Part shown: positions 1 through 19,615 of the stretch, piece by piece | How positions within the stretch are numbered: position 1 is the stretch's first letter | Layout of the letters: each line of letters opens with the position of its first letter | DNA from: a virus | DNA length: 64,000 nucleotides | Virus record (IMG/VR): IMGVR_UViG_3300010354_012181 | Coordinates: 1 to 64,000 of that record | Reading direction: 5' to 3' (one strand) | The notes under the pieces: generated by a model | The model's input: the letters and a program-made list of their open reading frames with translations, nothing else | Database searches by the model: none | Told to the model about the DNA's origin: nothing | Translations under genes and position numbers: made by a program

Positions 1-1671
1 AATATGTGGGGAGGCGGTGAAGACCTTAATGGAGGAACGCTCAGCGGCACATCAGGAGGTTACAGTGGAACACTGACCAGCGATAACGCCACACAGGCCG
101 CAGCCGGGACGATTACTCCATCCAGTGGCGGTACAACTACTCCGCCAACAGTGGTCAGTACCACAGTGACCTACACCACGAGAACATCGACCACAGGCAA
201 TACTACCTATGTTTACCGTACTCCTGTGACTACTACTGCTTACAGCGATAACACCACTACCGTAACCAATGGTACAGAAGCACTGTATCAGACCAAGGTA
301 TTGAGTAATGTGGTCACTAACAAGATAGAAAACGGTGTGTTAACCACATATACCAAACCTGTTTACAAGGTCACTCCAGCCGACGGCAGCGCCACTACTT
401 TAGAATCAGCAGGCGCACAGACTACTTCAACCCAGAATGTTCAGCCTGGCCTACAGTTTGAAGTTTGGCGCTATGACTATCACAATTACAGTTGCGGATG
501 GCTAGGATGCGTACAGATACCTTTCAGTTATCGTACACCTTCGACCAACAGATCCGACTACGGCAATCCCGTGAACTCTGGAATCACCACCGGAGGACAG
601 TATCTACAGACCAATGCTAGATTGCCCAACAACGACGGTGGTTGGATAAGCTACAACGACGGCACAGTGATCAGATACAGAGGAACCATCACAGTTCCTA
701 CCACCGATACCAGACCTGCTGGTACTGTGTACAGACTGTATTTTTACAACAACACCGACGATGGCTTCAAGATGATAGTCAATGGAACCACGGTGATCAA
801 TCAAAACTCTACCAACACCTGGCAATCACTGACGGGTTATACCAACAGTGGTTGGATCGATCTAGTAGCAGGCCAGACCTATAGCCTAGAATCCTGGTAT
901 TGGAACGTGGTGGGAGGAGTGGGGCACCGACTCTATTGGGATTACGGCAACGGCATACAGCAGATCCCTAACAGTGCTTTTACCACCGGCACACTCGGCA
1001 CTATAGATGTAGATGTTACAGGACTGAGTTACAGCGACTCAAACATAGTCAATGTCAGTGGCAGCAGCATACAAGGATTAGATCTTTGCTGCGGTGGTAG
1101 TTCTGCGGCCTTTAGCGCGAATACTCAGTTTGAAAATAGAGTTATAAATTTCCAAGCAAGACCATTCAGCGACACCGTTGTCAGCATCACACAGATCGGC
1201 AATAACAATTCTGCCACTGTGACACAAAGCGGAACACCTAATAACTACAGTGAAATCCACGTCACTGGTAGTAACAATATCACCAACACCACTCAAACCA
1301 GCACAGATCCGTCTGCCACTAATTATATTGAACTCACAGTAGTAGGCAGCACCAACACAATCAATCTCACGCAACAAAGTGAAGGGGGTCTAAAAGGAAT
1401 ATTGGCCACGGTAAATGACAGTAATAATTCTCTAACTGTGAACCAATCTGGTTCTGGAAGTCACTACGCAGAAATAACTCTTTCTGGAGGTAATAAAACA
1501 GTAAATCTCACACAGAGCGGATCTGCCATGCATATGTCTAACATCACGCTCAGTGGCGGGGCTACATCTTTGACAGCAACACAGAGCGGGTCAACACAAC
1601 AATTTTATTCTATCACACACAACTGCGCACAGATCAGTTGTGCGGCTATCACAGTCACACAGGGTCAATAA
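1..1671 (+). CDS. PA14-like and curlin-repeat surface protein (5' partial)
   Basis: The frame is already open at base 1, and the first residues (N, M, W, GGGED) do not look like an N-terminus, so the gene probably begins upstream. A Thr/Ser-rich stretch is followed by a PA14-like carbohydrate-binding fold at about residues 148-330, with the motif NNTDDGFKMIVNG and a closing RLYWDYGNG. Residues 390-550 carry degenerate curlin-type repeats such as ITQIGNNNSATVTQSG and LTVNQSGSGSHYAEITLSGG. Curli-related clusters have been reported in pelagimyophages (from memory). The protein may be a secreted or virion adhesin; which of these cannot be told. The next gene, which has a signal peptide, follows after 23 nt. 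Confidence 0.7.
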   Translation, partial: NMWGGGEDLNGGTLSGTSGGYSGTLTSDNATQAAAGTITPSSGGTTTPPTVVSTTVTYTTRTSTTGNTTYVYRTPVTTTAYSDNTTTVTNGTEALYQTKVLSNVVTNKIENGVLTTYTKPVYKVTPADGSATTLESAGAQTTSTQNVQPGLQFEVWRYDYHNYSCGWLGCVQIPFSYRTPSTNRSDYGNPVNSGITTGGQYLQTNARLPNNDGGWISYNDGTVIRYRGTITVPTTDTRPAGTVYRLYFYNNTDDGFKMIVNGTTVINQNSTNTWQSLTGYTNSGWIDLVAGQTYSLESWYWNVVGGVGHRLYWDYGNGIQQIPNSAFTTGTLGTIDVDVTGLSYSDSNIVNVSGSSIQGLDLCCGGSSAAFSANTQFENRVINFQARPFSDTVVSITQIGNNNSATVTQSGTPNNYSEIHVTGSNNITNTTQTSTDPSATNYIELTVVGSTNTINLTQQSEGGLKGILATVNDSNNSLTVNQSGSGSHYAEITLSGGNKTVNLTQSGSAMHMSNITLSGGATSLTATQSGSTQQFYSITHNCAQISCAAITVTQGQ

Positions 1672-1694: not shown

Positions 1695-1994
1695 ATGGCA
1701 AAATACATAGTGGCGTTCCTATTATGCTTAACCAGCACCGTAGCCAACGCCCAAGCATTTCAAACCAATAAACCTGTGATCTGTGATGACAGTAAAAAGA
1801 TCATAGAAGCCTTGGGAGAAAGATGGGGAGAACGTTTAGTGTGGCTATCAAACGATGCCCAAGATCTTAGTAAATTCGGACTGTTCGTGAATCAAAAAAC
1901 CAACACCTGGACTATACTACAATTTACAGCAGAAGTCGCTTGTATAGTAGGCGTAGGCAAGGATTCTCAGTTCATTTTAGGGACCAGTATCTAG
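1695..1994 (+). CDS. small exported protein
   Basis: This is a 99-residue protein with a clear Sec signal peptide (hydrophobic residues 4-14, cleavage probably after ANA-QA near residue 19). The mature part has two Cys (CDD and AEVACIVGVG) and ends with a hydrophobic C-terminus. The start at 1695 has an AAGGAG ribosome site 9 nt upstream; the longer frame from 1638 would overlap the preceding gene. Its position behind a curlin-repeat gene suggests an envelope partner or assembly factor. I do not recognise CsgE, CsgF or CsgG motifs in it, so that role is a guess from context. Confidence 0.7.
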   Translation: MAKYIVAFLLCLTSTVANAQAFQTNKPVICDDSKKIIEALGERWGERLVWLSNDAQDLSKFGLFVNQKTNTWTILQFTAEVACIVGVGKDSQFILGTSI

Positions 1995-2005: not shown

Positions 2006-4060
2006 ATGCTTAATAAAACTCTAAAACGTATACTAGTCAGTCCGTGGACTGCTCTAATCACATTGGCACTTATTACAAGTATAAGAATAGCCGATCCTGT
2101 CTTCATAGAAAGTGTAAGGTTAAGATATTTTGACACACTGATCACGAACCGAGCACCTACAGAAAATAATATCGTCACTGTAAACATAGACGAAAGTGCT
2201 CTAGACAAATATGGCCAATGGCCGTTTAACAGAGAAATCTACGCAAAGTTGATAGAAGATCTATACCAAAGAGGTGCTGGTCTAGTTGTATTCAATGTAT
2301 TAATGCCTGAACCAGATCGCCAGGGTGGAGATGGCGCACTGGCAGCGACACTAAATGAGTTTGCTGTGGTATTGCCTAATATGCCCGCAGACCGTATGAA
2401 GAATACTCCTAGACAGCCCGGTACTGCTGTGATGGGGCCTGACTTCCAGAATATGATCGTACAATATCCTGGCATCATCGCTAATATTCCAGACCTAGAA
2501 AAACGTGCCAAGGGAGTTGGCATAGTCAGCACTTTAGAAGAAGTCGACGGTGTGGTCCGTAGAATACCTTTGCTGATATCAGTAGATGGCAAAGTATATC
2601 CAAGCCTAGCCATGGAAGCATTGAGGGTAGCAGCAGGAGATAGCACTACACAGATAAAACTATTTGAGGGCGGTGTTGAGAAGATGCGCATACCCAAGTT
2701 TGGACCTATCACCACAGATCAATTAGGCCGTGTATGGATCGATTGGAGCCAGAAAAATAAATCTGTATCTATGACAGATCTGCCCAAAGACTTTGGTGGT
2801 GCTGTGGTCATAGTGGGAGTAGCAGCCGCAGGCCTAGGAAATCCCGTACCTACTGCTATGGGATCAGTATGGCCACAGGATGTGCAGGCAGCAGTGTTAG
2901 GTACGATGTTTAACAATGTGGTCATAGAGAGACCTGACTGGGCAGATGGTGCTGAAATTATATCTTTAATAGCGGCCGGCATCATATTATTATTTTTAAC
3001 GAGGTGGACCTATGTTGGAATTATCAGCGGTATTGTTATTATTGGCAGCATCATTCCTGTTTCTCAATACTTGTATTCATCTAATCTTTGGCTCTTTGAC
3101 GGCACTGCGTTGGTTGCTGGGCTTGTTATTGTCATGCTTCACGCTTATGGCATTAAGTTCATAAGCGAGTTCTTACAGAAGCAGGCCATAAAGAAACAGT
3201 TTGCTGGCTATTGTTCTAAAGAAGTTGTAGAGATGTTACAGAAAGATCCAGAACTTATCAAGCGTGGTGTGCGTAAAGATGTATCAGTTATGTTCAGTGA
3301 TCTGCGTGGCTTTACTCCTATCGGTGAACACTACGGCGATGACGTAGCAGGACTAGCCAAGTATATGAATGGTTATATGGATGCTATCTCTAAGCCAATC
3401 TTAGACAACAAAGGTATGGTTATCAAGTATGTAGGTGATGCTAGTATGCACATACACGGTGCTCCAATCGATGACCCGGATCATGCAAAGACCATGATCC
3501 GTGTTGGCCTTGAAATGTTAGATGCTGTAGACGCATATACCAAAGAAATGGAAGCACAGGGATTGCCGCCCGCGGCCATGGGTTGGGGTGTTAACAGTGG
3601 TATTGGATTCATCGGTGAGATGGGTTCAACTGACAGACACAGCTACGATATCCTGGGCGATATGGTTTCCACTGCGGCTCGTCTAGAAGCCCGTTGTAAG
3701 GCCTATGGTGTTCTTAACATCGTAGGAGCAGAAACATATAATAGAACAAAAGATGATTTCTTCTACCTAATGCTAGACAATCTACAGCCTAAAGGAAAGT
3801 CAGTCGCTGATTTGATCTATACCGCATTGCGTCCAAAAGGATCAGATTGGACTAAAGATAAAGCACAACATGAAAAAATGCATGCCTTATACAAAGCCAA
3901 AAAGTTCGATGAAGCAGCGGCAATGTGTAAAACTATGAAAGGACTTTTTGGAGGACAGATGGACAAGTACTATAAGATTTGGATAGAACGTTGTGATTTT
4001 ATGAAACAGCAGGACCTTCCAGATAATTGGAATGGCGAATTCATAGCCCACGAAAAATAA
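2006..4060 (+). CDS. CHASE2-domain class III adenylate cyclase
   Basis: This 684-residue protein has an N-terminal membrane segment (about residues 13-27), a CHASE2-type periplasmic sensor (about 30-300), two or three membrane helices (about 313-385) and a class III nucleotide cyclase domain (about 425-600). Metal-binding Asp432 (MFSDLRGFT) and Asp478 (KYVGDAS) are present. Lys474 and Asp548 (YDILGD) are the adenine-specifying pair, which favours cAMP over cGMP. Arg559 is kept, but the usual transition-state Asn is Ser555 (VSTAAR). The architecture is common in bacteria and unexpected in a phage. It probably changes host cAMP in response to an envelope signal. A small gene starts inside its stop codon (TAATG). 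Confidence 0.88.
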   Translation: MLNKTLKRILVSPWTALITLALITSIRIADPVFIESVRLRYFDTLITNRAPTENNIVTVNIDESALDKYGQWPFNREIYAKLIEDLYQRGAGLVVFNVLMPEPDRQGGDGALAATLNEFAVVLPNMPADRMKNTPRQPGTAVMGPDFQNMIVQYPGIIANIPDLEKRAKGVGIVSTLEEVDGVVRRIPLLISVDGKVYPSLAMEALRVAAGDSTTQIKLFEGGVEKMRIPKFGPITTDQLGRVWIDWSQKNKSVSMTDLPKDFGGAVVIVGVAAAGLGNPVPTAMGSVWPQDVQAAVLGTMFNNVVIERPDWADGAEIISLIAAGIILLFLTRWTYVGIISGIVIIGSIIPVSQYLYSSNLWLFDGTALVAGLVIVMLHAYGIKFISEFLQKQAIKKQFAGYCSKEVVEMLQKDPELIKRGVRKDVSVMFSDLRGFTPIGEHYGDDVAGLAKYMNGYMDAISKPILDNKGMVIKYVGDASMHIHGAPIDDPDHAKTMIRVGLEMLDAVDAYTKEMEAQGLPPAAMGWGVNSGIGFIGEMGSTDRHSYDILGDMVSTAARLEARCKAYGVLNIVGAETYNRTKDDFFYLMLDNLQPKGKSVADLIYTALRPKGSDWTKDKAQHEKMHALYKAKKFDEAAAMCKTMKGLFGGQMDKYYKIWIERCDFMKQQDLPDNWNGEFIAHEK

Positions 4061-4221
4061 TGTATACTCCTATAGATTGGTGGATTGACTATTCAGTGTG
4101 GATGATGCTACAATACAAATTTATGAGTCCTGCTAAATTTATCAGCATCAACGACGAAATGGAAAATTTCCTTAAGCAGTTTAGTCTTAATGGAATAAAA
4201 TCTTTTAAAATCTGCAGATGA
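4060..4221 (+). CDS. small hypothetical protein
   Basis: A 53-residue ORF whose ATG overlaps the cyclase stop (TAATG) and whose stop overlaps the next start (ATGA), so it is translationally coupled on both sides. It is aromatic near the N-terminus (IDWWIDYSVWMM), with a basic C-terminus (KSFKICR). There is no signal peptide and no recognised domain. Position and couplings support it as a real gene; its function is unknown. Confidence 0.55.
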   Translation: MYTPIDWWIDYSVWMMLQYKFMSPAKFISINDEMENFLKQFSLNGIKSFKICR

Positions 4222-4937
4222 TCAACAAGTTATTTTTTATCATCGTTCTAACGATGCTGAGCCCATTTGTATCCGCAAATACTATTACCGCTCAATCATG
4301 GTTAGTTGCCGATGCAGAAGGCAAAATTATCGCGGCAGAGAATGTAAAAGAAATCCGCAGTATAGCAAGTATCACCAAGATTGTTTCAGCAATGGTGGTG
4401 CTAGATGCCCAGCAAGAATTAGATCAATTTTTAAAACCCTACACTCGTAGAGAACTGATACAATTGTCTATGGTAAGATCAGACAATACTGCCGCAGATA
4501 ATCTGTGCAGACATTATCCGGGAGGTTATGCTAACTGTGTTTATGCTATGAATGTTAAGGCGCAGGCTTTAGGATTGACCAACACTAAATTCGTAGACGC
4601 CACTGGATTAGGAGCAGGTAATGTCAGCACTGCTGAGGAACTGATTAAAATTGTACAGGCTGCGGCACATTATCCGGAACTAGTAACTGCCAGTAAAATG
4701 TCTGAGGTAAAAATACAACTAAAGAAACGATGGTTGATATTTAAAAACACAAATCCTATTATAGGTAGACGTCATGAATTCGTTATCAGTAAAACAGGCT
4801 GGATACGTGCTTCCGGTGGATGTATTGTTATGATGCTAGATACAGATATCGGACGGAGAATCGTAGTCGTTTTAGGTTCAAAGAATACTCATACACGAAT
4901 TCCAGAAGCAGAATTCATAGCACAAATTAAAAATTAA
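4218..4937 (+). CDS. D-alanyl-D-alanine carboxypeptidase/endopeptidase (peptidase S11, PBP7-like)
   Basis: A 239-residue exported protein with a signal peptide (about residues 1-20, SANT cleavage region). All three active-site motifs of low-molecular-weight penicillin-binding proteins are present in order: Ser51-x-x-Lys54 (SITK), Ser88-Asp89-Asn90, and Lys192-Thr193-Gly194. Such enzymes trim or cut peptide crosslinks of peptidoglycan in the periplasm. It lacks the C-terminal domain of larger S11 members, as PBP7-type endopeptidases do. The start overlaps the upstream stop by 4 nt. It converges with the minus-strand small membrane gene set, so a role in lysis or wall remodelling is plausible. 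Confidence 0.87.
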   Translation: MINKLFFIIVLTMLSPFVSANTITAQSWLVADAEGKIIAAENVKEIRSIASITKIVSAMVVLDAQQELDQFLKPYTRRELIQLSMVRSDNTAADNLCRHYPGGYANCVYAMNVKAQALGLTNTKFVDATGLGAGNVSTAEELIKIVQAAAHYPELVTASKMSEVKIQLKKRWLIFKNTNPIIGRRHEFVISKTGWIRASGGCIVMMLDTDIGRRIVVVLGSKNTHTRIPEAEFIAQIKN

Positions 4938-5335
4938 CCTTCTCCCGAAGCGGCTGTTTTTTTATCTTCTTTTTGTTGGTCGTCTATATCGTCTTTACGG
5001 GCAAAAGGTTTAATATCTTTATCGTCCATACGGGCCGCTTTGTCAAACTTTTCATTGGCTTCCCTCTCTACTTTTACCTGTTCCATGACCCGATCGCTTT
5101 CAATGATCTTTCCACGAAGATGTAAAACAGTATTAACTTTCTGATTTAAGCGGATAAGATCGTTGTCTAACATACGAATACGATCAATAAGCGCAACAAG
5201 AGTGGTGTTGGCTTCTCCTATCACTGGTTTGACTTCTTTGGTACACCACTCCCAGACATATTTGATGATCCATCCCATTCCCACAGCCATGACTATAGGA
5301 AAACCATATTTGTTAATGAGTTCTACTACATCCAT
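4934..5335 (-). CDS. holin-like membrane/coiled-coil protein
   Basis: A 133-residue protein with one N-terminal transmembrane segment (about residues 10-28, YGFPIVMAVGMGWII) followed by a long charged helix that is probably a coiled coil and an acidic/basic tail. This resembles BhlA/UviB-type holin-like proteins. The upstream minus-strand gene at 6032-6313 has the same plan (short start, GFPI motif, membrane helix, coiled helix), so the two look like paralogues. An AAGGAG site precedes the start at normal distance. It is the last gene of a six-gene minus-strand run and overlaps the end of the convergent D,D-peptidase gene by 4 nt. Confidence 0.65.
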   Translation of the reverse strand: MDVVELINKYGFPIVMAVGMGWIIKYVWEWCTKEVKPVIGEANTTLVALIDRIRMLDNDLIRLNQKVNTVLHLRGKIIESDRVMEQVKVEREANEKFDKAARMDDKDIKPFARKDDIDDQQKEDKKTAASGEG

Positions 5336-5848: not shown

Positions 5849-6032
5849 TTTCTGTCGCTCCTTTGATAATAAATTTTTCAATATCACTGACCTTTACTAG
5901 CATCTGTCGTCCATTAACATTTATAAATTTGAAATAATCACCGCCTTTCCAGCCTAATTTATCTGTGTTTAATTCGTTATCTAGAATTATTCTATCAGGA
6001 TAAAGATCCCAGTCATAGTCAAAATGTTTCAT
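5832..6032 (-). CDS. small hypothetical protein
   Basis: A 66-residue soluble protein (MKHFDYDWDLYPDRIILD start). Its ATG overlaps the stop of the gene before it (TAATG) and its 3' end overlaps the next gene by 17 nt, carrying that gene's ribosome site. It is rich in Asp, Lys and aromatic residues with no membrane segment, unlike its neighbours. No family recognised. Confidence 0.6.
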   Translation of the reverse strand: MKHFDYDWDLYPDRIILDNELNTDKLGWKGGDYFKFINVNGRQMLVKVSDIEKFIIKGATENEQVK

Positions 6033-6313
6033 TAATCTCTTCTCGCATCATTTTTTCCATCAGCACGGGCTATTCTGTCTACATCTGGCTTGAGTCCTAG
6101 AGCATTTGAAACTATAGTGTCAATCCTAACTACATCATGATTCATAGTTTTAACTCGATTATCCAAAGCTATGATAATACCTTTCATGCCATTAATACTT
6201 CCCAAGACTCCTTGCAAAAGCAGTCTAATAGTTAAGTATACAAAATATCCGCCAGCCAGTGCGACCGCGATTGGAAAGCCCAAATCGCCGATCAATTTGA
6301 AGATTTCATTCAT
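6032..6313 (-). CDS. holin-like membrane/coiled-coil protein, first gene of minus-strand cassette
   Basis: A 93-residue protein with an N-terminal membrane helix (about residues 8-30, LGFPIAVALAGGYFVYL) and a predicted coiled helix after it. The start at 6313 follows a GGAG site; the frame extends further upstream but into the promoter of the divergent phosphoesterase gene. It resembles the gene at 4934-5335 in plan and in the GFPI element, which suggests duplication. It heads a run of six overlapping small genes, most of them membrane proteins. Confidence 0.62.
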   Translation of the reverse strand: MNEIFKLIGDLGFPIAVALAGGYFVYLTIRLLLQGVLGSINGMKGIIIALDNRVKTMNHDVVRIDTIVSNALGLKPDVDRIARADGKNDARRD

Positions 6314-6352
6314 GATTTCGCTCCAAGATTTACATTTGTATTTAAGTTCTTC

Positions 6353-6381
6353 TTGACAAAATACGAACTTGGTGTTATAAT
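6353..6381 (+). promoter_or_regulatory. sigma70-type promoter
   Basis: TTGACA (6353-6358), 17 bp spacer, TATAAT (6376-6381), with an extended -10 TG. It points at the phosphoesterase gene starting at 6408. Confidence 0.85.
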
Positions 6382-6407
6382 ATGCGTATATTTCAGAAAG
6401 TTTTATT

Positions 6408-7202
6408 ATGAAAATCCAAATTGTATCCGATCTACATCTAGAGTTTGAAGACATTGTCATTAAAAATGAAAATGATGCCGATCTGTTGATACTCAGCGGA
6501 GATATCATGGTCGCTAGTAAAGTTAATAAACCCGAAAGTGCATATGGTATCCGTTTTCGAGATTTTTTGAAGCGTTGTTCTTTCCAGTTCCCGCACGTGA
6601 TCTATGTAGCAGGCAATCACGAGTTCTACGATAGTGGAAAATTCTTTGGGGGAATTGATGAACTACGATCAGCCTGTTCGGTACACGAAAATATCTACTT
6701 CTTAGAGCGTGATACTAAAGTCATCGACGATATAGTATTTGTTGGAGGAACTCTATGGACCGATATGAATAAGTATGATCCGTTAACTCTCCATGCTGTC
6801 CGAGATAGAATGAATGACTATCGCGCTACTGTAAACGATTATGCCGGATTTCGGAAACTAAAACCTGCAGATACTTGTGAGCGCCATAAGTTAACTGTTG
6901 AGTATATAAAATTAATGGCCAAAGAATATCACGATAAAAAAATGGTAGTGGTTGGACATCATAGTCCTAGTTTTGCCAGTGTACACTCTTCTTATGCAAA
7001 TGAGTATATCATGAATGGCGCTTATCATAGCGATCTATCAGACATAATGTTAGATAATCCACAGATAAAATTATGGACACATGGTCATACACATTTTCCA
7101 TTTGATTACATGATTGGTAGTTGTCGTGTCGTGTGTAACCCGCGGGGTTATGATGGGTACGAAGACACAGGTTGGGATCCAAATAAGATTGTTGAAATAT
7201 GA
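6408..7202 (+). CDS. calcineurin-like metallophosphoesterase
   Basis: A 264-residue protein with the complete metallophosphoesterase motif set: Asp8-x-His10, SGD near residue 32, GNHE near residue 70, a GHH motif and a final GHTH. These bind two metal ions for hydrolysis of phosphomono- or diesters; the substrate is unknown. Phage homologues are common. It starts about 20 nt after a predicted transcription start and overlaps the next gene by ATGA. A second, shorter phosphoesterase lies at 21930-22535. Confidence 0.88.
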   Translation: MKIQIVSDLHLEFEDIVIKNENDADLLILSGDIMVASKVNKPESAYGIRFRDFLKRCSFQFPHVIYVAGNHEFYDSGKFFGGIDELRSACSVHENIYFLERDTKVIDDIVFVGGTLWTDMNKYDPLTLHAVRDRMNDYRATVNDYAGFRKLKPADTCERHKLTVEYIKLMAKEYHDKKMVVVGHHSPSFASVHSSYANEYIMNGAYHSDLSDIMLDNPQIKLWTHGHTHFPFDYMIGSCRVVCNPRGYDGYEDTGWDPNKIVEI

Positions 7203-13078: not shown

Positions 13079-13167
13079 GGATAGGTGCGCTGAATTGGTT
13101 GAAGGCAACGGACTGTAAATCCGCCACATAAGAAACATTGTAGGTTCGAATCCTACCCTATCCACCA
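13079..13167 (+). tRNA. tRNA-Tyr (GTA)
   Basis: Acceptor GGATAGG pairs with CCTATCC; anticodon loop CTGTAAA; long variable arm as expected for bacterial tRNA-Tyr; T arm GTAGG-TTCGAAT-CCTAC; CCA encoded. Confidence 0.92.
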
Positions 13168-13174
13168 ATATTAT

Positions 13175-13203
13175 TTGACTTTTTTCTTTTTTGATGTTAT
13201 AAT
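13175..13203 (+). promoter_or_regulatory. sigma70-type promoter, leaderless mRNA likely
   Basis: TTGACT (13175-13180), 17 bp, TATAAT (13198-13203) with extended TG. The expected start of transcription coincides with the ATG at 13210, leaving no room for a ribosome site. Confidence 0.8.
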
Positions 13204-13209
13204 AACAAT

Positions 13210-13977
13210 ATGAAAATAAAAATTGCTCTTAGTTCGTTTTTGCTAACAGTATGTTTATCCGGATGCGGAGCCACTCTAACAGCCAAAGATGGCACAAAAA
13301 TGCCTGTGAGTGTTTCTGAGTATAGAGCATATAGAGATAAACCGGCACCAACAGTTTTAATTTCACATGGCAGCGACGGTGTTCAAAAACATCACGTAGA
13401 ATGGGCTAAAGAAATACAATCTTGGGGCTTCAATGCTGTGGTGATCGATCATTATTCCTTACGCGGAATATCAATGCACATAGGCATTGTGTTACCTAAT
13501 ATGAGAGGTGAACATAGGGCACGTGATATAGTGGAGGCAGGGAGATGGGCGAAATCTCAAACTTGGCATAAAGGCAAGATTTCTGTAATTGGCTTTAGTC
13601 AGGGAGGTAGCGGTGTAATGGCATTAGTAAATGGAAAAGACAGAGAGTACAATAAAATACTGTTAAAAGGTGAGGAGATGCCAATCGATTCGGCCGTAGC
13701 ATTTTATCCCGGTTGCAGTATAAGCTTTCCTCCGTTAACTCCTAGTATGCCAGTGCAGATGCATCTTGCAGGAGAAGATACTCTGGCTTTGACTAGTTAT
13801 TGCGAACCATTAACAGATAAAAATTATACGGTACATAGATACAATAATGCTACTCATGCCTTTGATGTATATTTAGGATCATTTAAACCTAAATTTTATC
13901 ATAGATATGATCCTAACATTACTGCCGTTGCCAAAAAAAATACCAGAGATTTTTTAGTAAAAAACTTAAAAGAATGA
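13210..13977 (+). CDS. lipoprotein alpha/beta hydrolase (dienelactone hydrolase-like)
   Basis: A 255-residue predicted lipoprotein: hydrophobic signal with a lipobox ending at Cys19 (CLSGC). The rest is an alpha/beta hydrolase of dienelactone-hydrolase type, with SHGSDG near residue 52 (oxyanion region), nucleophile Ser130 (GFSQGG), Asp190 (AGEDTL) and His216 (ATHAFD). It would sit at the inner leaflet of the host outer membrane or in the periplasm and hydrolyse an ester or lactone; the substrate is unknown. The mRNA appears leaderless. It is AT-rich and stands alone between tRNA genes, as a moron would. Confidence 0.82.
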   Translation: MKIKIALSSFLLTVCLSGCGATLTAKDGTKMPVSVSEYRAYRDKPAPTVLISHGSDGVQKHHVEWAKEIQSWGFNAVVIDHYSLRGISMHIGIVLPNMRGEHRARDIVEAGRWAKSQTWHKGKISVIGFSQGGSGVMALVNGKDREYNKILLKGEEMPIDSAVAFYPGCSISFPPLTPSMPVQMHLAGEDTLALTSYCEPLTDKNYTVHRYNNATHAFDVYLGSFKPKFYHRYDPNITAVAKKNTRDFLVKNLKE

Positions 13978-13979
13978 TC

Positions 13980-14120
13980 ATTTAGAAGTAGCACAGCTCG
14001 TGAGGCACCGATCAAGCCTAACCTTGTCCAAAGCGGAAAGCCTGTGATACTAGTAATGTCAGCCTATAAGGTTTGACACATCAGGTAGCAAGAGGATAGT
14101 AAACTGTGTTACTCCTAAAT
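13980..14120 (+). ncRNA. structured RNA abutting tRNA-Asp
   Basis: The ends of this 141-nt stretch pair over 17 positions: 13980-13996 with 14104-14120, 15 Watson-Crick pairs, one G-T and one mismatch. An inner AACCTT (14020-14025) pairs with AAGGTT (14068-14073). The element starts 3 nt after a stop codon and ends at the base before tRNA-Asp, so RNase P cleavage of the tRNA would free its exact 3' end. No RNA family recognised. Confidence 0.6.
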
Positions 14121-14195
14121 GGTCCCATAATATATCGGTTAGTATACTGGCCTGTCACGCCGGAAGGATGGGTTCGACTCCCATTGGGACCGCCA
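14121..14195 (+). tRNA. tRNA-Asp (GTC)
   Basis: Acceptor GGTCCCA/TGGGACC; anticodon stem CTGGC/GCCGG around loop CTGTCAC; CCA encoded. Confidence 0.92.
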
Positions 14196-14236
14196 AATTT
14201 TTTACATGACAAGTTTTTTCTGATAAGTAGATTTAC

Positions 14237-14312
14237 GCCGGTTTAGCACAGTGGTAGTTGCAATCGCCTTGTAAGCGATAGGTCGTCAGTTCGAATCCGA
14301 CAACCGGCACCA
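14237..14312 (+). tRNA. tRNA-Thr (TGT)
   Basis: Acceptor GCCGGTT/AACCGGC; anticodon arm ATCGC-CTTGTAA-GCGAT; CCA encoded. Confidence 0.93.
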
Positions 14313-14318
14313 TTTTAA

Positions 14319-14394
14319 TGTCCTGTAGATCAGTCGGTAGATCAGCGGACTGTTAATCCGTGTGTCGGTGGTTCGAGCCCACCCAGGACAGCCA
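14319..14394 (+). tRNA. tRNA-Asn (GTT)
   Basis: Acceptor TGTCCTG/CAGGACA; anticodon arm GCGGA-CTGTTAA-TCCGT; discriminator G; CCA encoded. Confidence 0.93.
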
Positions 14395-14410
14395 ATTTAT
14401 GGAGTGTTGT

Positions 14411-14563
14411 ATGCCGATGTATGAAACAACTGTAAGAACACCGCAAGGTGAAGAAAAGAAACGTGTTTACGCGAAAGACGTAAAAGAAGCAAAACAACTT
14501 TTCGAACAACTTTACGGTGGTCCTAGAGCAGTTCCTTATATACCGCACATAGTACCAAGTTAA
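14411..14563 (+). CDS. small basic protein between tRNA genes
   Basis: A 50-residue ORF starting at 14411, 6 nt after GGAG; upstream in-frame ATGs lie inside or next to tRNA-Asn. It reads MPMYETTVRTPQGEEKKRVY, then a short helix and a Pro-rich end (AVPYIPHIVPS). It fills the gap between tRNA-Asn and tRNA-Ala. Unknown function. Confidence 0.55.
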   Translation: MPMYETTVRTPQGEEKKRVYAKDVKEAKQLFEQLYGGPRAVPYIPHIVPS

Positions 14564-14565
14564 TT

Positions 14566-14639
14566 GGGGGATTAGTTAAATGGGATAACATCGGCTTTGC
14601 AAGCCGAGATTAACAGTTCGATTCTGTTATCCTCCACCA
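14566..14639 (+). tRNA. tRNA-Ala (TGC)
   Basis: Acceptor GGGGGAT/ATCCTCC with one G-T; anticodon arm TCGGC-TTTGCAA-GCCGA; CCA encoded. It begins 2 nt after the stop of the small ORF before it. Confidence 0.92.
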
Positions 14640-14654
14640 AGTTGTAAATTTTTT

Positions 14655-14733
14655 CCGGGTGTAGCTTAGTCTGGCTTAAAGCGCCTGCTTTGGGAGCAGG
14701 AGATCGTGAGTTCGAATCCCACTTCCCGGACCA
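14655..14733 (+). tRNA. tRNA-Pro (TGG)
   Basis: Anticodon arm CCTGC-TTTGGGA-GCAGG; T arm GTGAG-TTCGAAT-CCCAC; CCA encoded. The acceptor pairs well for five bases (CCGGG/CCCGG) but has weak T-T and G-T positions at its base. Confidence 0.88.
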
Positions 14734-14738
14734 ATTTT

Positions 14739-14813
14739 GCATCGTTAGTTCAGCGGTAGAACGTCGCCCTTACAAGGCGAATGTCAGTGGTTCGACTCCA
14801 TTACGATGCACCA
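14739..14813 (+). tRNA. tRNA-Val (TAC)
   Basis: Acceptor GCATCGT/ACGATGC; anticodon arm TCGCC-CTTACAA-GGCGA; CCA encoded. Confidence 0.93.
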
Positions 14814-14820
14814 TATAAAT

Positions 14821-14896
14821 ATCTCGCTAGTGTTTAACGGCAGCACGTCGGTCTCCAAAACCGAAAGACGGGGTTCAAATCCCTGGCGAGGTGCCA
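14821..14896 (+). tRNA. tRNA-Trp (CCA)
   Basis: Acceptor ATCTCGC/GCGAGGT; anticodon arm TCGGT-CTCCAAA-ACCGA; discriminator G; CCA encoded. Confidence 0.92.
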
Positions 14897-14902
14897 AAAT
14901 TT

Positions 14903-14977
14903 GCTCGGTTCGTCTATCGGTTAGGACACCGCCCTTTCACGGCGGGAAGAGGGGTTCGATTCCCCTACCGAGTACCA
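14903..14977 (+). tRNA. tRNA-Glu (TTC)
   Basis: Acceptor GCTCGGT/ACCGAGT; anticodon arm CCGCC-CTTTCAC-GGCGG; CCA encoded. Confidence 0.93.
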
Positions 14978-14982
14978 AATAT

Positions 14983-15056
14983 GCGGGATTAGTTTATTGG
15001 TAAAACAGAACCTTGCCAAGGTCCAGTGACCAGTTCGATTCTGGTATCCCGCTCCA
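14983..15056 (+). tRNA. tRNA-Gly (GCC)
   Basis: Acceptor GCGGGAT/ATCCCGC; anticodon loop TTGCCAA, stem GAACC/GGTCC with one A-C mismatch; CCA encoded. Confidence 0.9.
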
Positions 15057-15063
15057 AGTTTTT

Positions 15064-15163
15064 GCCTCTGTAGCTTAATCGGTAAAGAAGCGAGCTTATA
15101 CCTCGCCAAAGCACCGGCCAGATAAGCCGGCGTGTGCAGGTTCGAGTCCTGCCAGAGGCACCA
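15064..15163 (+). tRNA. unusual class II tRNA, anticodon TAT (Ile-type) with long variable arm
   Basis: Acceptor GCCTCTG/CAGAGGC; first hairpin GCGAG-CTTATAC-CTCGC gives anticodon TAT. Between it and the T arm (GCAGG-TTCGAGT-CCTGC) lie 29 nt containing a second 5-bp hairpin, CCGGC-CAGATAA-GCCGG. That second loop looks like the anticodon loop of tRNA-Ile (GAT). Length is 100 nt, CCA encoded. Which loop is read, and whether the tRNA is charged with Ile, cannot be decided from sequence. Confidence 0.72.
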
Positions 15164-15217
15164 ATATCATTATAAATTTAGTACAATTTATTTTAGGGTA
15201 AGTATTAGATATAAAAT

Positions 15218-15295
15218 GTGTCGGTGGCAGAGAGGCCCAATGCAAGAGTCTGCAAAACTCTAAAACCGTGAGTTCGAATCTCACCCGGCACTCCA
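15218..15295 (+). tRNA. tRNA-Cys (GCA)
   Basis: Acceptor GTGTCGG/CCGGCAC; anticodon loop CTGCAAA with stem AGAGT/ACTCT; T arm GTGAG/CTCAC; CCA encoded. Confidence 0.9.
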
Positions 15296-15300
15296 ATATT

Positions 15301-15846
15301 ATGAAACAATTTAATTATAATCATCTTAATAATTTTATAGCAGGTTGGTATATTGACAATAATATTTGTGATGCTATAGTTTCTAAAGGAGAAGATAATT
15401 TATTATTATTTTCTGCAGGAATAAAAGAATATACAAACTGCGATTTAAAAAATTTTGACGTTATATTAAATGATTTATATTCTAACCAACTCACTAAAGT
15501 GTTGGAAGAATACAAAAAAATATATCCTTACTGCTTTAAAAATTTGAATACTTGGAAATTTACTCCGCCTCGAATTCAGAGATACGATCCAGGAAAATCA
15601 TACAGTGAAATTCATTGTGAAAATAACGGACAGACCTTGTATCAAACCAGGCACTTAGTTTACATGACGTATCTTAATGATATTACAAATGGTGGAGGTA
15701 CTGAATTCCCCTATCAAAATTTAACTACTCCTCCAGAAAAAGGTTTAACCTTAGTTTGGCCGGCGGGTTGGACACATCAACATCGTGGTATAGTTAGCAA
15801 TAAAGAAACAAAGTATATAATTACTGGTTGGTGCTGTTTTGATTAA
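15301..15846 (+). CDS. 2-oxoglutarate/Fe(II) oxygenase, prolyl 4-hydroxylase type
   Basis: A 181-residue protein starting at ATG 15301, right after tRNA-Cys. The prolyl-4-hydroxylase-like core shows an iron-binding H-x-E (IHCENNG), the GGGTEFPYQN segment, and a distal HQHRGIVSNKETKYIITGW with His and a 2-oxoglutarate-binding Lys. These enzymes hydroxylate proteins or small molecules. It is AT-rich and lies alone between tRNA genes, so it is probably a moron. Related folds recur across the window, but this one is of the P4H subtype. Confidence 0.78.
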   Translation: MKQFNYNHLNNFIAGWYIDNNICDAIVSKGEDNLLLFSAGIKEYTNCDLKNFDVILNDLYSNQLTKVLEEYKKIYPYCFKNLNTWKFTPPRIQRYDPGKSYSEIHCENNGQTLYQTRHLVYMTYLNDITNGGGTEFPYQNLTTPPEKGLTLVWPAGWTHQHRGIVSNKETKYIITGWCCFD

Positions 15847-15859
15847 ATCAATAATTTAG

Positions 15860-15941
15860 GCCCCTGTGGCGCAAAATACCGGGAAGACGCGACTGTTCAA
15901 GAGACAGTAATGTGCGGGTTCGAATCCCGTCAGGGGCACCA
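15860..15941 (+). tRNA. tRNA-Leu-like (atypical anticodon loop, AAG or CAA)
   Basis: Acceptor GCCCCTG/CAGGGGC and a Leu-like D arm (TGGCGCAAAAT...AGACGCG). The perfect stem ACTGT/ACAGT encloses TCAAGAG, giving AAG by position but with C at base 33. A one-base shift reads CAA after TT. Either reading is a Leu anticodon. The variable region is short for a tRNA-Leu. CCA encoded. Confidence 0.75.
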
Positions 15942-15947
15942 GTTTAC

Positions 15948-16035
15948 GGAAGTGTGGTCGAGTGGTCTATGGCACTGGTCTTGAAAACCAGCGATCTGAA
16001 AGGGTCCGTGAGTTCGAATCTCACCGCTTCCGCCA
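15948..16035 (+). tRNA. tRNA-Ser (TGA)
   Basis: Acceptor GGAAGTG/CGCTTCC; anticodon arm CTGGT-CTTGAAA-ACCAG; long variable arm; discriminator G; CCA encoded. Confidence 0.93.
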
Positions 16036-16050
16036 TTTTAGGAGATGAAT

Positions 16051-16248
16051 ATGGAAGTTAACTCAGTGACTTATTACGGTTGGAGAGATAATCTACAAAC
16101 CGTAGAAAAACGCATCACCTATGATTATTCTAATGGTAATGATGTAACTGTAGTCGAACGTAGATCTTATCTTATAACTCTTTATGACGGAAGAGGTAAT
16201 GTAGATGTGTCTCAGAGCAAAGGTAACAATATTGATCAAATGGCCTGA
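16051..16248 (+). CDS. small protein whose stop lies inside tRNA-Ile
   Basis: A 65-residue protein starting at ATG 16051, 6 nt after GGAG; ATG 16045 touches the ribosome site and is less likely. It is a strand-rich sequence (NSVTYYGWRDNLQTVEKRIT, later RRSYLITLYDGRGNVDVSQ). The stop TGA (16246-16248) falls in the acceptor stem of the next tRNA, so gene and tRNA overlap by 6 nt. Unknown function. Confidence 0.6.
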   Translation: MEVNSVTYYGWRDNLQTVEKRITYDYSNGNDVTVVERRSYLITLYDGRGNVDVSQSKGNNIDQMA

Positions 16249-16317
16249 TTAGCTCAGTGGTAGAGCATCGTCTTGATAAGGCGAGGGTCCGTGGATCGTT
16301 CCCACGATCAGGCACCA
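16243..16317 (+). tRNA. tRNA-Ile (GAT)
   Basis: Acceptor GCCTGAT/ATCAGGC; anticodon loop TTGATAA with stem TCGTC/GGCGA; CCA encoded. Overlaps the preceding CDS end. Confidence 0.92.
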
Positions 16318-16319
16318 AT

Positions 16320-16395
16320 GGGACGTTAGCTCAGTTGGTAGAGCAGCGGACTTTTAATCCGTTGGTCACTGGTTCGAATCCAGTACGTCCTACCA
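16320..16395 (+). tRNA. tRNA-Lys (TTT)
   Basis: Acceptor GGGACGT/ACGTCCT; anticodon arm GCGGA-CTTTTAA-TCCGT; CCA encoded. Confidence 0.93.
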
Positions 16396-16400
16396 TATTT

Positions 16401-16476
16401 GGTAACGTAGCATAGCGGCTAATGCGGCACCTTCATACGGTGTTTATCGTGAGTTCGAGTCTCACCGTTACTACCA
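16401..16476 (+). tRNA. tRNA with CAT anticodon (elongator Met or Ile2)
   Basis: Acceptor GGTAACG/CGTTACT; anticodon arm GCACC-TTCATAC-GGTGT; CCA encoded. It has no C1-A72 mismatch, so it is not an initiator. Met and lysidine-modified Ile cannot be told apart here. Confidence 0.88.
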
Positions 16477-16482
16477 AACAAT

Positions 16483-16558
16483 TGGGGATTCGCCAAGTTG
16501 GTAAGGCATCGGATTTTGATTCCGACATTCGGTGGTTCGAGTCCATCATCCCCAGCCA
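16483..16558 (+). tRNA. tRNA-Gln (TTG)
   Basis: Acceptor TGGGGAT/ATCCCCA; anticodon arm TCGGA-TTTTGAT-TCCGA; discriminator G; CCA encoded. Confidence 0.92.
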
Positions 16559-16559
16559 A

Positions 16560-16636
16560 CGGTCCTTAACTCAATGGATTAGAGTGCCAGTCTTCGAAAC
16601 TGGAGGTTGGGGGTTCGAGTCCCTCAGGGCCGGCCA
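16560..16636 (+). tRNA. tRNA-Arg (TCG)
   Basis: Acceptor CGGTCCT/AGGGCCG; anticodon arm CCAGT-CTTCGAA-ACTGG; discriminator G; CCA encoded. It begins one base after the CCA of tRNA-Gln. Confidence 0.9.
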
Positions 16637-16642
16637 TACAAT

Positions 16643-16716
16643 GGTGTTGTTAGTGTAGTGGTAACACGACTGTCTGTGAAACAGTAAACCAGGGTTCGAT
16701 TCCCGACTTCACCCCA
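16643..16716 (+). tRNA. tRNA-His (GTG)
   Basis: Anticodon arm ACTGT-CTGTGAA-ACAGT; extra 5' G opposite C73 as in tRNA-His; ends CCCCA. The acceptor carries two T-T mismatches and the T stem is weak, so it may be partly degenerate or need modification. Confidence 0.82.
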
Positions 16717-16720
16717 GTTA

Positions 16721-16793
16721 CCCGCTTTAGCTGATGTGGTCATAGCAACGGTTTGAAGAACCGTGGAACGTGGTTCGATCCCACGAGGCGGGA
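16721..16793 (+). tRNA. tRNA-Phe (GAA), CCA not encoded
   Basis: Acceptor CCCGCTT/AGGCGGG; anticodon arm ACGGT-TTGAAGA-ACCGT; T arm CGTGG/CCACG. After discriminator A the sequence is CAT, so the CCA end must be added. It is the only tRNA here lacking encoded CCA. Confidence 0.88.
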
Positions 16794-16795
16794 CA

Positions 16796-17707
16796 TTAAT
16801 TTATAAATTCTAGTCCTTTGAAATAATGTTGTCGATTAACCAATAATTCTAAAGGCTGCGTGTATTTTTTAACATAACCTATTACTATTTCTAAAGGCAT
16901 ATTTTTTGGGGAAAGATTAAAATTTTTACACCATGTTTCAAACTTCATTGAGGAATATAACTTTTTTCTATTCTCATTAGTGTCAAACACAAAACCACCA
17001 TGAGAACCAAATCTACCAGTGCAATCTATTTCCGTAGGATCATCGTTTTCATAAAATGATTGTAATGGTGGTTTACCAAGAATAGATCTATTTAAGAGAA
17101 CAAGATTTTTTTGATTATAATTAAAAAATTTATAATTAGAAAGCAAGTCTTCTGAATTAAAGGTTAACCAATTATCCCAAGTTATGGGCCTGATCTCAAA
17201 TGATGTTATAGGATAAAACGTATTGGTGAATATTTTATTTTCCGTTAAATTTGCCACGTGTTCAAGACTGTGAACATTATTATTTAGATTTTCTATTGAT
17301 TTTATGAAATCTTGTTTATCATAATCATTAATAATGTTAAAATTGCAATCAAACGGATTTGGTAAATTATGATAGGGATCTGAATCGATCCAAATCATGT
17401 TTTTTGTAAAAAATCTATGAATAAAATTAAGAGTCGATTGTTGAAAATCAAATGTAGGCGATAACTGAAATGGGATTTTAAATCCTTTATTTTCAAGGTT
17501 AATTAAACTCTTTAGAATTTCATTCCAGCAGGATTCAACATCTATATGATCTCGATAAGAGTGCGGGTGATAGCACCAATACTCATTTCTCATTGTGTAT
17601 GTTTCTTTTTTAGAAGAAAAAAAATCAAACCATTTTTGAATTAAAGATTCATCGAATAATTCAATAAGAACATAATTAGATTTTTGAAAAGTTAATAAAA
17701 GACGCAT
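16796..17707 (-). CDS. hypothetical protein, AT-rich moron
   Basis: A 303-residue protein on the minus strand, inserted between tRNA-Phe and a plus-strand small gene. It is very AT-rich and Asn/Phe-rich. Visible elements are YWCYHPHSYRDHID near residue 45, IWIDSDPYHNLPNPFDCN near residue 110 and GRFGSHGGFVFDTNENRK near residue 235. No family recognised; the several His/Asp pairs might bind metal. A TATAAATA motif on the minus strand (17712-17719) lies directly upstream, so it may be late-expressed. Confidence 0.65.
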   Translation of the reverse strand: MRLLLTFQKSNYVLIELFDESLIQKWFDFFSSKKETYTMRNEYWCYHPHSYRDHIDVESCWNEILKSLINLENKGFKIPFQLSPTFDFQQSTLNFIHRFFTKNMIWIDSDPYHNLPNPFDCNFNIINDYDKQDFIKSIENLNNNVHSLEHVANLTENKIFTNTFYPITSFEIRPITWDNWLTFNSEDLLSNYKFFNYNQKNLVLLNRSILGKPPLQSFYENDDPTEIDCTGRFGSHGGFVFDTNENRKKLYSSMKFETWCKNFNLSPKNMPLEIVIGYVKKYTQPLELLVNRQHYFKGLEFIN

Positions 17708-17711
17708 AAAA

Positions 17712-17719
17712 TATTTATA
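17712..17719 (-). promoter_or_regulatory. T4-late-type TATAAATA motif
   Basis: Minus-strand TATAAATA ends 4 nt before the start codon of the 17707 gene. This matches the T4 late promoter core but would leave almost no leader. Confidence 0.4.
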
Positions 17720-17728
17720 GGAGTAATT

Positions 17729-17923
17729 ATGAGACCAATCACTTTAAAAAATCGATTGAACAACGATCGTTTTATCTGCGACGATATAAAAATCACTGAA
17801 ATTATAGATGGTGTAGAATATCTTTTGGTTAAACGATTAGGTGAAAATAGAAAATTTTTGATGCGTAAAGAGGCATTAGAAAAGGTTGACACAGCGGAAA
17901 AAAAATCTTATAATAAGAAATGA
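17729..17923 (+). CDS. small hypothetical protein
   Basis: A 64-residue protein with an AGGAG ribosome site 6 nt upstream. Strand-rich basic sequence (RPITLKNRLNNDRFICDDIK, later YLLVKRLGENRKFLMRKEAL). The last part of the gene contains a sigma70 promoter that reads into the tRNA-Leu pair. Unknown function. Confidence 0.6.
   Translation: MRPITLKNRLNNDRFICDDIKITEIIDGVEYLLVKRLGENRKFLMRKEALEKVDTAEKKSYNKK
17886..17914 (+). promoter_or_regulatory. sigma70-type promoter for tRNA-Leu pair
   Basis: TTGACA (17886-17891), 17 bp, TATAAT (17909-17914), located inside the end of the preceding gene; it reads into tRNA-Leu at 17930. Confidence 0.85.
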
Positions 17924-17929
17924 TAGCAA

Positions 17930-18012
17930 GCCCCGATGGTGGAATGGTAGACACGCTGGTCTTAGAAGCCAGTGCCTAGTGCGTGAGAGTTCGAGTCTCT
18001 CTTGGGGCACCA
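17930..18012 (+). tRNA. tRNA-Leu (TAG)
   Basis: Acceptor GCCCCGA/TTGGGGC; anticodon loop CTTAGAA with stem CTGGT/GCCAG; long variable arm; CCA encoded. Confidence 0.92.
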
Positions 18013-18017
18013 AATAT

Positions 18018-18102
18018 GCGACTGTGGTGAAATCGGTAGACACAAGAGACTTAAAATCTCTCGCTTTCGGGCGTGCCAGTTCGATTCTGGCCAGTCGCAC
18101 CA
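18018..18102 (+). tRNA. tRNA-Leu (TAA)
   Basis: Acceptor GCGACTG/CAGTCGC; anticodon arm AGAGA-CTTAAAA-TCTCT; long variable arm; CCA encoded. Confidence 0.92.
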
Positions 18103-18120
18103 TTATTGTAAATATTTGTT

Positions 18121-18603
18121 ATGAACAATTATTTAAATTATATTGATACACCCTCCCTGCCTGAATCGATAATCCAGGAGGTTTATAAAAGTACACAAAA
18201 TCCAAATATTTTTTACGTTCAAAAAAGTCAGAATGAATATGGATTATATGAAGCTACAGACTTATTAAAAGAGTATACTCATAAAATTTTCTCATTTCAA
18301 CATAAAACAAGAGTACAAAAAATATATAAAGACCTTTTCATTCATAAGGACTTTGAAAGGGGTTTAGCCTACAACTATCTGATAGATCTAGGTGGAGATA
18401 ATGTAGAAACTTGTTTTTTTGATAATGATTTTAAATTAGTTGAAACCCATGTGATTAAAAAACACGCATGGCATACTCTAGACGTAACAGTTTTTCATAG
18501 TGTAAAAAATGTTACTCACCCAAGATTGGCCATAACTCTTTTTCCTATCGACAGTAAAGTAAATTATTTTAAATTAGCAGATCAAAATTGGTGTAAAGAA
18601 TAG
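18121..18603 (+). CDS. 2-oxoglutarate/Fe(II) oxygenase-like (Asp/Asn hydroxylase type)
   Basis: A 160-residue AT-rich protein. The iron site is H-x-D in LFIHKDFERGLAYNYLID, with the distal His in TVFHSVKNVTHPRLAITLF, where Arg would bind 2-oxoglutarate. This spacing fits the aspartyl/asparaginyl beta-hydroxylase-like group that recurs in the island further right. Substrate unknown. It lies just after the tRNA-Leu pair and before a methyltransferase gene of similar base composition. Confidence 0.72.
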   Translation: MNNYLNYIDTPSLPESIIQEVYKSTQNPNIFYVQKSQNEYGLYEATDLLKEYTHKIFSFQHKTRVQKIYKDLFIHKDFERGLAYNYLIDLGGDNVETCFFDNDFKLVETHVIKKHAWHTLDVTVFHSVKNVTHPRLAITLFPIDSKVNYFKLADQNWCKE

Positions 18604-18647
18604 ATGTGTGTTCTATAAATTATTTGTATTAGGTTATAACTAAAAAT

Positions 18648-19271: not shown

Positions 19272-19277
19272 GTTTAT

Positions 19278-19367
19278 GGAGAGTTGGCCGAGTGGCTGAA
19301 GGCAGCGGCTTGCTAAGCCGTCCACGGGTTAAACCGTGCATAGGTTCGAATCCTATACTCTCCGCCA
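19278..19367 (+). tRNA. tRNA-Ser (GCT)
   Basis: Acceptor GGAGAGT/ACTCTCC; anticodon arm GCGGC-TTGCTAA-GCCGT; long variable arm; discriminator G; CCA encoded. Confidence 0.93.
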
Positions 19368-19389
19368 AATTTTTAAAAAGGAAACATAT

Positions 19390-19566: not shown

Positions 19567-19581
19567 CATAACCAAAATGTC

Positions 19582-19609: not shown

Positions 19610-19615
19610 AGTTTT

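What the first reader, a model, noticed from the sequence alone, without database searches (positions are those of the whole stretch)
2006..4060. Phage-encoded CHASE2 adenylate cyclase with a Ser in place of the transition-state Asn
Full sensor-membrane-cyclase architecture with both metal Asp, and the Lys474/Asp548 pair for ATP. The Asn normally two residues after GD-x is Ser555. A membrane sensor cyclase would let the phage set host cAMP from an outside signal, which could alter lysis timing, catabolite control or anti-phage signalling.
Basis: partly seen in the sequence, partly recalled or inferred. Interest (0 to 1): 0.7.

Follow-up and report, generated by a model that had tools for sequence, protein, structure and literature searches.

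The report
Phage curli-module membrane cyclase, Asn-to-Ser lineage
Large aquatic phages carry, at the end of a set of genes for making curli-like fibres, a membrane sensor that probably makes cyclic AMP inside the infected cell; its unusual active-site serine is a fixed trait of a whole phage lineage, not a defect.

Summary
ORF 2006-4060 (684 aa) is CHASE2 + TM helices + class III nucleotidyl cyclase, with both metal Asp, the Lys474/Asp548 pair, Arg559, and Ser555 in place of the usual Asn. The contig is viral. At least 344 viral contigs encode relatives, and the gene is the last of a phage curli (type VIII secretion) module, csgF-csgG-curlin-FecR-curlin-cyclase. That module, cyclase included, was published for pelagiphages in 2022; Melnitz and HTVC008M isolates carry it. 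What I found no description of: phage CHASE2 cyclases fall into two catalytic types, canonical Ser548/Asn555 (HTVC008M-like, 77/77 readable) and Asp548/Ser555 with His482/His484 (window, Melnitz; 79/79 in a set not chosen by residue). None of 69 sampled bacterial CHASE2 cyclases has Asp548 or Ser555. Both types sit on one phage sensor lineage in the same operon slot, so the catalytic domain has been exchanged. Catalytic-domain dN/dS is about 0.05, arguing against a dead enzyme; M. avium Ma1120 (Ala for Asn, yet active) shows Asn is dispensable. Most likely an active adenylate cyclase coupling an envelope/curli-FecR signal to host cAMP receptors; activity, ligand and target are untested.

The parts
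4..1671 (+). Curlin-repeat protein of the phage curli module; cut at its 5' end by the contig edge
   Evidence: Pfam Curlin_rpt PF07012 E 2.5e-4; homologues upstream of the cyclase in 47 of 80 viral loci
1695..1994 (+). Small protein with a signal-peptide-like N terminus, between curlin gene and cyclase; function unknown
   Evidence: found in 14 of 80 related loci, usually just upstream of the cyclase
2006..4060 (+). CHASE2 - transmembrane - class III nucleotidyl cyclase, 684 aa
2060..2983 (+). CHASE2 sensor domain (aa 19-326 in the Pfam match)
2942..3202 (+). Three transmembrane helices and signalling helix (aa 313-399)
   Evidence: AF2 helices H313-333, H335-360, H367-399
3275..3766 (+). Class III cyclase catalytic domain; D432 (3299-3301), K474 (3425-3427), D478 (3437-3439), D548 (3647-3649), R559 (3680-3682)
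3668..3670 (+). Codon of Ser555, at the position of the transition-state Asn
3836..4057 (+). Conserved helical C-terminal tail (aa 611-684), absent from the HTVC008M protein
4218..4937 (+). D-Ala-D-Ala carboxypeptidase/endopeptidase-like (S11) gene downstream, frequent neighbour (39 of 80 loci)
   Evidence: Pfam PF00768 E 1.6e-37
4934..5335 (-). Convergent small putative membrane protein (phrog_18771), neighbour in 70 of 80 loci

Best explanation
The gene is the signalling component of a phage-borne curli (type VIII secretion) module. SHOWN by sequence: a phage gene; CHASE2 sensor, TM helices, class III cyclase; a fixed place after csgF-csgG-curlin-FecR-curlin in related phages; a distinct catalytic lineage (D548, S555, H482, H484) that has been exchanged with a canonical Asn-type catalytic domain on the same phage sensor lineage; strong purifying selection. 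INFERRED: the infected cell makes a curli-like pore and fibre; FecR and CHASE2 read a state of the envelope or fibre (assembly, a bound ligand, or a surface); this relieves or triggers the cyclase; the cyclase makes cAMP (K474/D548 pair) with Ser555 and Arg559 taking the place of the usual Asn-Arg pair; cAMP acts through the host's own cAMP receptors, since no cNMP-binding (PF00027) domain was found in 34 such phage records. The infected cell would then adjust its physiology while bearing the phage-encoded fibres.
For: Curli module: among 61 viral loci with at least 7.9 kb upstream of the cyclase, 59 have csgG, 60 FecR, 53 the full set; Pfam confirms CsgF, CsgG, FecR and Curlin_rpt in L021/L071; annotated in cultured Melnitz and HTVC008M. 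Both catalytic types in the same slot: 22/23 Asn-type loci with at least 5 kb upstream have csgF, csgG and FecR. Catalytic residues other than Asn kept: D432, K474, D478, D548, R559 invariant. Selection: median dN/dS 0.05 in the cyclase domain, 0.13 in CHASE2, 93 pairs. Domain exchange: HTVC008M vs Melnitz 56% in CHASE2 but 36% in cyclase, HTVC008M vs three of four bacterial cyclases 44-46%; AU tests reject S-type sensors as one clade (p 0.009) and reject Melnitz-like + Asn-type cyclases as one clade (p 0.004). Asn is dispensable: Ma1120 has Ala there and is active, A164N drastically lowers its activity (PMC4215837). Precedents for the wiring: S. meliloti CHASE2 cyclases raise cAMP on a signal perceived through outer-membrane NsrA and act via Clr (PMC13001267), and CyaD1 without CHASE2 makes cAMP constitutively (PMC5498481); FecR next to a CHASE2 kinase in a Burkholderia biofilm operon (PMC5192318). 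No receptor in phage: PF00027 0 of 34 records.
Against: No activity has been measured for any phage member that I could find. The ligand is unknown. Melnitz infection showed no visible clumping (PMC9004378), so fibre formation itself is unproved. Upstream csgF/csgG/FecR are not on this contig, which ends inside the curlin gene (one search finds no CsgG); their presence here is inferred from relatives. L048 lacks recognisable module genes within its upstream flank. The host of the window's phage is unknown, so a cAMP receptor in the host is assumed. The cyclase loop 538-551, which carries D548, is predicted with pLDDT under 50.
Confidence: 0.58

Rival explanations
1. Pseudo-cyclase: with Asn lost, the catalytic domain is inactive and serves as a nucleotide-binding or dimerising scaffold for the sensor.
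For: Loss of one residue of the transition-state pair across the whole lineage; very long branch to the S-type catalytic clade (4.28); altered neighbouring residues H482/H484.
Against: Both metal Asp, Lys, Asp548, Arg559 and the K596-G597-K598 segment are invariant or nearly so; the strongest purifying selection lies in the catalytic domain; a canonical domain occupies the same slot in related phages; Ma1120 precedent.
Confidence: 0.17
2. Active cyclase with a different product: the D548/S555 site prefers another nucleotide (GTP, or CTP/UTP as in Pycsar cyclases), giving the phage a signal that the host's own pathways do not make.
For: Active-site combination not seen in 69 bacterial CHASE2 cyclases; PADLOC PycC models match the cyclase domain (E 1e-12).
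Against: K474 and D548 are the textbook ATP pair; PycC models match the canonical HTVC008M domain better (E 1e-24), so the hit reflects general class III homology; no cNMP-binding protein in these phages.
Confidence: 0.13
3. Lysis-timing device: the CsgGF pore with the cyclase and the adjacent S11 peptidase regulates release of progeny, as proposed for the Melnitz CsgGF pore.
For: Proposal in PMC9004378; S11 peptidase follows the cyclase in 39 of 80 loci and a small membrane protein in 70 of 80.
Against: Most modules also carry curlin-repeat proteins, some with F5/8-type carbohydrate-binding domains, which suggests fibres rather than a bare pore; no lysis assay exists; neighbours are not shown to be lysis genes.
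Confidence: 0.1
4. Bacterial sequence joined to a phage contig.
For: CHASE2 cyclases are common in bacteria (161 of 398 Pseudomonadota genomes have a match at E 1e-30).
Against: Nearest bacterial genes are only about 26-35% identical, while viral ones are 65-84%; cultured phages carry it; the diagnostic motif is absent from 397 of 398 Pseudomonadota genomes, and the one exception is a MAG whose two matching copies sit among phage relatives in the trees.
Confidence: 0.01

Closest known systems
T8SS-associated 'adenylate cyclase' of pelagiphages (PMC9599517); HTVC008M gp019
   Same: Same operon slot after csgF-csgG-curlin-FecR-curlin; homologous CHASE2 sensor
   Different: HTVC008M-type catalytic domain is canonical Ser548/Asn555, 36% identical to the window's, and the protein lacks the C-terminal tail; the passages found in the paper do not discuss CHASE2 or the active site
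Methylophilales phage Melnitz cyclase (MZ577095-MZ577098)
   Same: Same gene order and same S-type catalytic site (YDVLGDSVSTAARIE)
   Different: 45% identical overall; CHASE2 belongs to the other phage sensor branch; annotated only as 'adenylate/guanylate cyclase catalytic domain'
PHROG family phrog_35576 (unknown function)
   Same: Near full-length match E 2.2e-188
   Different: No function assigned in that library
Bacterial CHASE2 adenylate cyclases, e.g. S. meliloti CyaD1/CyaD2/CyaK
   Same: Same sensor-TM-cyclase architecture
   Different: Sampled bacterial members have Thr/Ser at 548 and Asn (rarely Thr) at 555, mostly Ala at 482, Trp/Phe at 484; 10 sampled upstream genes had no FecR match
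Mycobacterium avium Ma1120
   Same: Class III cyclase with a Lys/Asp base pair and no Asn at the transition-state position
   Different: Ala rather than Ser; different overall protein; experimentally active

Membership tests
Class III nucleotidyl cyclase | Class III catalytic fold | tested here: met
   PF00211 E 9.3e-16; Foldseek to Cya2, CyaB, CyaC, TMt 0.72-0.76
Class III nucleotidyl cyclase | Two metal-binding Asp | tested here: met
   D432 and D478 invariant
Class III nucleotidyl cyclase | Transition-state Arg | tested here: met
   R559 invariant
Class III nucleotidyl cyclase | Transition-state Asn (usual, not universal and so not defining: Ma1120 lacks it and is active) | tested here: not met
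   Ser555 in all S-type members; Ma1120
Class III nucleotidyl cyclase | Cyclic nucleotide formed from NTP | not testable with these tools
   needs an enzyme assay
CHASE2 membrane cyclase | N-terminal CHASE2 between TM helices, cytoplasmic cyclase | tested here: met
   PF05226 E 1.6e-40; AF2 helices
Phage curli (T8SS) module cyclase | Follows csgF-csgG-curlin-FecR genes | tested here: inconclusive
   Curlin-repeat gene upstream in the window, contig then ends; full module in 53 of 61 relatives with enough flank
Pycsar cyclase PycC | Cyclase paired with a cNMP-binding effector | tested here: not met
   No PF00027 domain in 34 phage records, including the window's own contig
Pycsar cyclase PycC | CTP/UTP specificity | not testable with these tools
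   needs an enzyme assay; K474/D548 speak for ATP

The most novel reading that the evidence does not exclude
The S-type catalytic domain is a phage-specific branch of class III cyclases with a rebuilt active site (D548/S555/H482/H484) whose product or kinetics differ from host cyclases, so that the phage drives or bypasses host second-messenger control from a fibre or envelope signal, with sensor and output domains shuffled between phage lineages.
Probability: 0.2. Interest if true: 0.72.

Novelty: new variant of a known kind. Interest (0 to 1): 0.5.

Why it matters
Phage-encoded second-messenger synthesis is hardly studied. Here a membrane cyclase is a stable part of a module carried by hundreds of viral contigs, from cultured marine phages to records of over 350 kb. 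The natural exchange of Asn-type and Ser-type catalytic domains under one sensor lineage gives a ready experiment on what the transition-state residue does, and the conserved FecR-CHASE2-curli set makes the puzzling phage curli genes testable by measuring a small molecule.

Tried and rejected
Bacterial contamination: rejected. Pycsar membership: rejected for lack of any cNMP-binding partner; the PADLOC hits are general class III homology. A phage-encoded cAMP receptor was sought and not found in 34 records. FecR next to bacterial CHASE2 cyclases: none in the 10 upstream fragments tested, all partial, so FecR-cyclase adjacency looks phage-typical in this sample, though a FecR-CHASE2 kinase operon exists in Burkholderia. 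One scan of GTDB genomes returned only three loci, two in one MAG and one in another; these group with phage relatives and are probably phage contigs in MAG bins. The idea that L076 is a second domain swap (CHASE2 69% to window, cyclase 79% to Melnitz) was not supported by the AU test (p 0.71), so it is left as a similarity only. Whether Asn-type and Ser-type phage cyclases share one phage ancestor is open (AU p 0.60). The metallophosphoesterase at 6408-7202 was considered as a cAMP phosphodiesterase; NCBIfam scores are far under the cut-offs.

Full report
CHECK OF THE OBSERVATION. ORF 2006-4060 on the + strand encodes 684 aa. Pfam finds CHASE2 (E 1.6e-40, aa 19-326) and Guanylate_cyc (E 9.3e-16, aa 424-585). 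AF2 with 29 homologous sequences gives mean pLDDT 84.5 and the expected order: TM helix, periplasmic domain, three TM helices, cyclase, helical tail. Foldseek's best matches are class III cyclases.

IS IT PHAGE? Yes. The record is an IMG/VR virus contig of 72,449 bp, the window being its first 64,000 bases. The window also holds a head-maturation-protease match, a giant tail-fibre gene with a baseplate-type N terminus and 24 tRNA genes. Relatives of the cyclase are encoded on 344 viral contigs found by one pattern scan (best 80 kept, 65-84% identical in the best segment). In annotated phages it occurs in four Melnitz isolates (45%) and HTVC008M (35%). The nearest bacterial proteins in 398 Pseudomonadota genomes are at most 35% identical apart from one MAG with phage-like copies.

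CONTEXT. In Melnitz and HTVC008M the gene ends an operon csgF-csgG-curlin-(FecR)-curlin-cyclase. I searched the 80 viral loci with those proteins: of 61 loci with at least 7.9 kb upstream, 59 have csgG, 60 have FecR and 53 the whole set. Pfam confirms CsgF, CsgG and FecR in two of them, Curlin_rpt in one, and F5/8-type carbohydrate-binding domains in the second curlin protein of both. In L079, L080 and L082 the module lies downstream on the other strand. In the window the gene upstream (4-1671) is a curlin-repeat protein cut by the contig end; CsgG is not elsewhere on the contig. So membership in the module is inferred for this contig and shown for its relatives. Downstream neighbours, an S11 peptidase and a convergent small putative membrane protein, recur in 39 and 70 of 80 loci.

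THE SERINE. In the 80 loci recruited without reference to that residue plus the window, S555 is present in all 79 sequences that could be read there, together with D432, K474, D478, D548 and R559 (two rows were unusable at most positions). Adding sequences found by a pattern that demands the serine, and HTVC008M-like ones, gives 159 Asp548/Ser555 and 77 Ser548/Asn555 and no mixed type among those with a readable motif (the 79 pattern-selected ones are Ser by construction). In 69 bacterial CHASE2 cyclases position 555 is Asn (66) or Thr (3), position 548 is Thr (39), Ser (29) or Arg (1), position 482 is mostly Ala, and position 484 is Trp or Phe, where the phage S-type has His and His. The motif YDxxGDxVST was found in 1 of 398 Pseudomonadota genomes, a MAG whose two copies group with phage sequences. 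The sample is not exhaustive.

TWO CATALYTIC TYPES ON ONE SENSOR LINEAGE. CHASE2 domains of all phage members form one group against bacteria (SH-aLRT 99), and within it the Asn-type (HTVC008M-like) and Melnitz-like sensors group together (99), apart from the window's branch. In the cyclase tree all S-type domains are one group (100) and all Asn-type domains another (100). AU tests reject S-type sensors as a clade (p 0.009) and Melnitz-like + Asn-type cyclases as a clade (p 0.004). Pairwise identities tell the same: HTVC008M vs Melnitz 56% in CHASE2 and 36% in the cyclase domain, HTVC008M vs three of four bacterial cyclases 44-46%. The catalytic half has therefore been exchanged while sensor and operon slot stayed: 22 of 23 Asn-type loci with enough flank also have csgF, csgG and FecR. 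Direction and donor are not resolved (an all-phage cyclase clade is not rejected, p 0.60). The groups in these tests were named after a first tree was seen, so the p values are somewhat optimistic.

IS IT ACTIVE? I found no test of any phage member. For activity: median dN/dS 0.05 in the cyclase domain against 0.13 in CHASE2 over 93 comparable pairs; all other catalytic residues kept; interchangeable in evolution with a canonical domain. A direct precedent: M. avium Ma1120 has Ala instead of Asn, is active, and its A164N mutant loses most AC activity and all GC activity (PMC4215837). The K474/D548 pair points to ATP; this rests on established knowledge of class III cyclases.

MECHANISM. In S. 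meliloti, CHASE2 cyclases make cAMP when an external protein is perceived through the outer-membrane barrel NsrA, and cAMP acts through the CRP-like Clr (PMC13001267); CyaD1 without CHASE2 is constitutively active (PMC5498481). FecR next to a CHASE2 kinase occurs in a Burkholderia biofilm operon (PMC5192318). By analogy, phage FecR and CHASE2 would read the state of the phage-made curli pore or fibre, or a bound surface, and set cAMP in the host. No cNMP-binding domain was found in 34 of these phage records, so host receptors are the likely targets. Every step after 'sensor-cyclase in a curli module' is inference.

WHAT IS KNOWN. Phage T8SS modules with FecR and an adenylate cyclase were described for pelagiphages (PMC9599517), the CsgGF genes earlier (PMC7029224) and in Melnitz (PMC9004378). 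PHROGs holds the family as unknown (phrog_35576). I found no paper joining the terms CHASE2, phage and cyclase on this subject, and none of the passages read mentions the serine or two catalytic types; most subscription literature was not searchable. Hence: new variant of a known kind.

Noticed in passing
window 13079-20894: 24 tRNA genes of nearly all specificities in the phage, typical of a large-genome phage; the 72 kb contig is probably a fragment.
   Followed up: no
window 6408-7202: Calcineurin-like phosphoesterase gene, conserved near the cyclase in 26 of 80 related loci; weak similarity to cAMP phosphodiesterase and to an antiphage phosphoesterase, far under NCBIfam cut-offs.
   Followed up: partly
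window 56368-63999: Very long ORF (over 2544 aa) with tail-fibre and baseplate-wedge-connector matches.
   Followed up: no
window 4934-5335 and 6032-6436, - strand: Two small putative membrane proteins of one family (phrog_18771) on the strand opposite the cyclase, present in 70 and 66 of 80 loci; one has a faint holin match.
   Followed up: partly
L021:6059-7693, L071:6291-7961: Second curlin-type protein of the phage module carries an F5/8-type (galactose-binding-like) domain, so the fibre may bear a carbohydrate-binding part.
   Followed up: partly
L021:2976-4130: Phage CsgG with an extra C-terminal SH3_3 domain.
   Followed up: no
L079, L080, L082: Curli module lies downstream of the cyclase on the opposite strand instead of upstream.
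   Followed up: no
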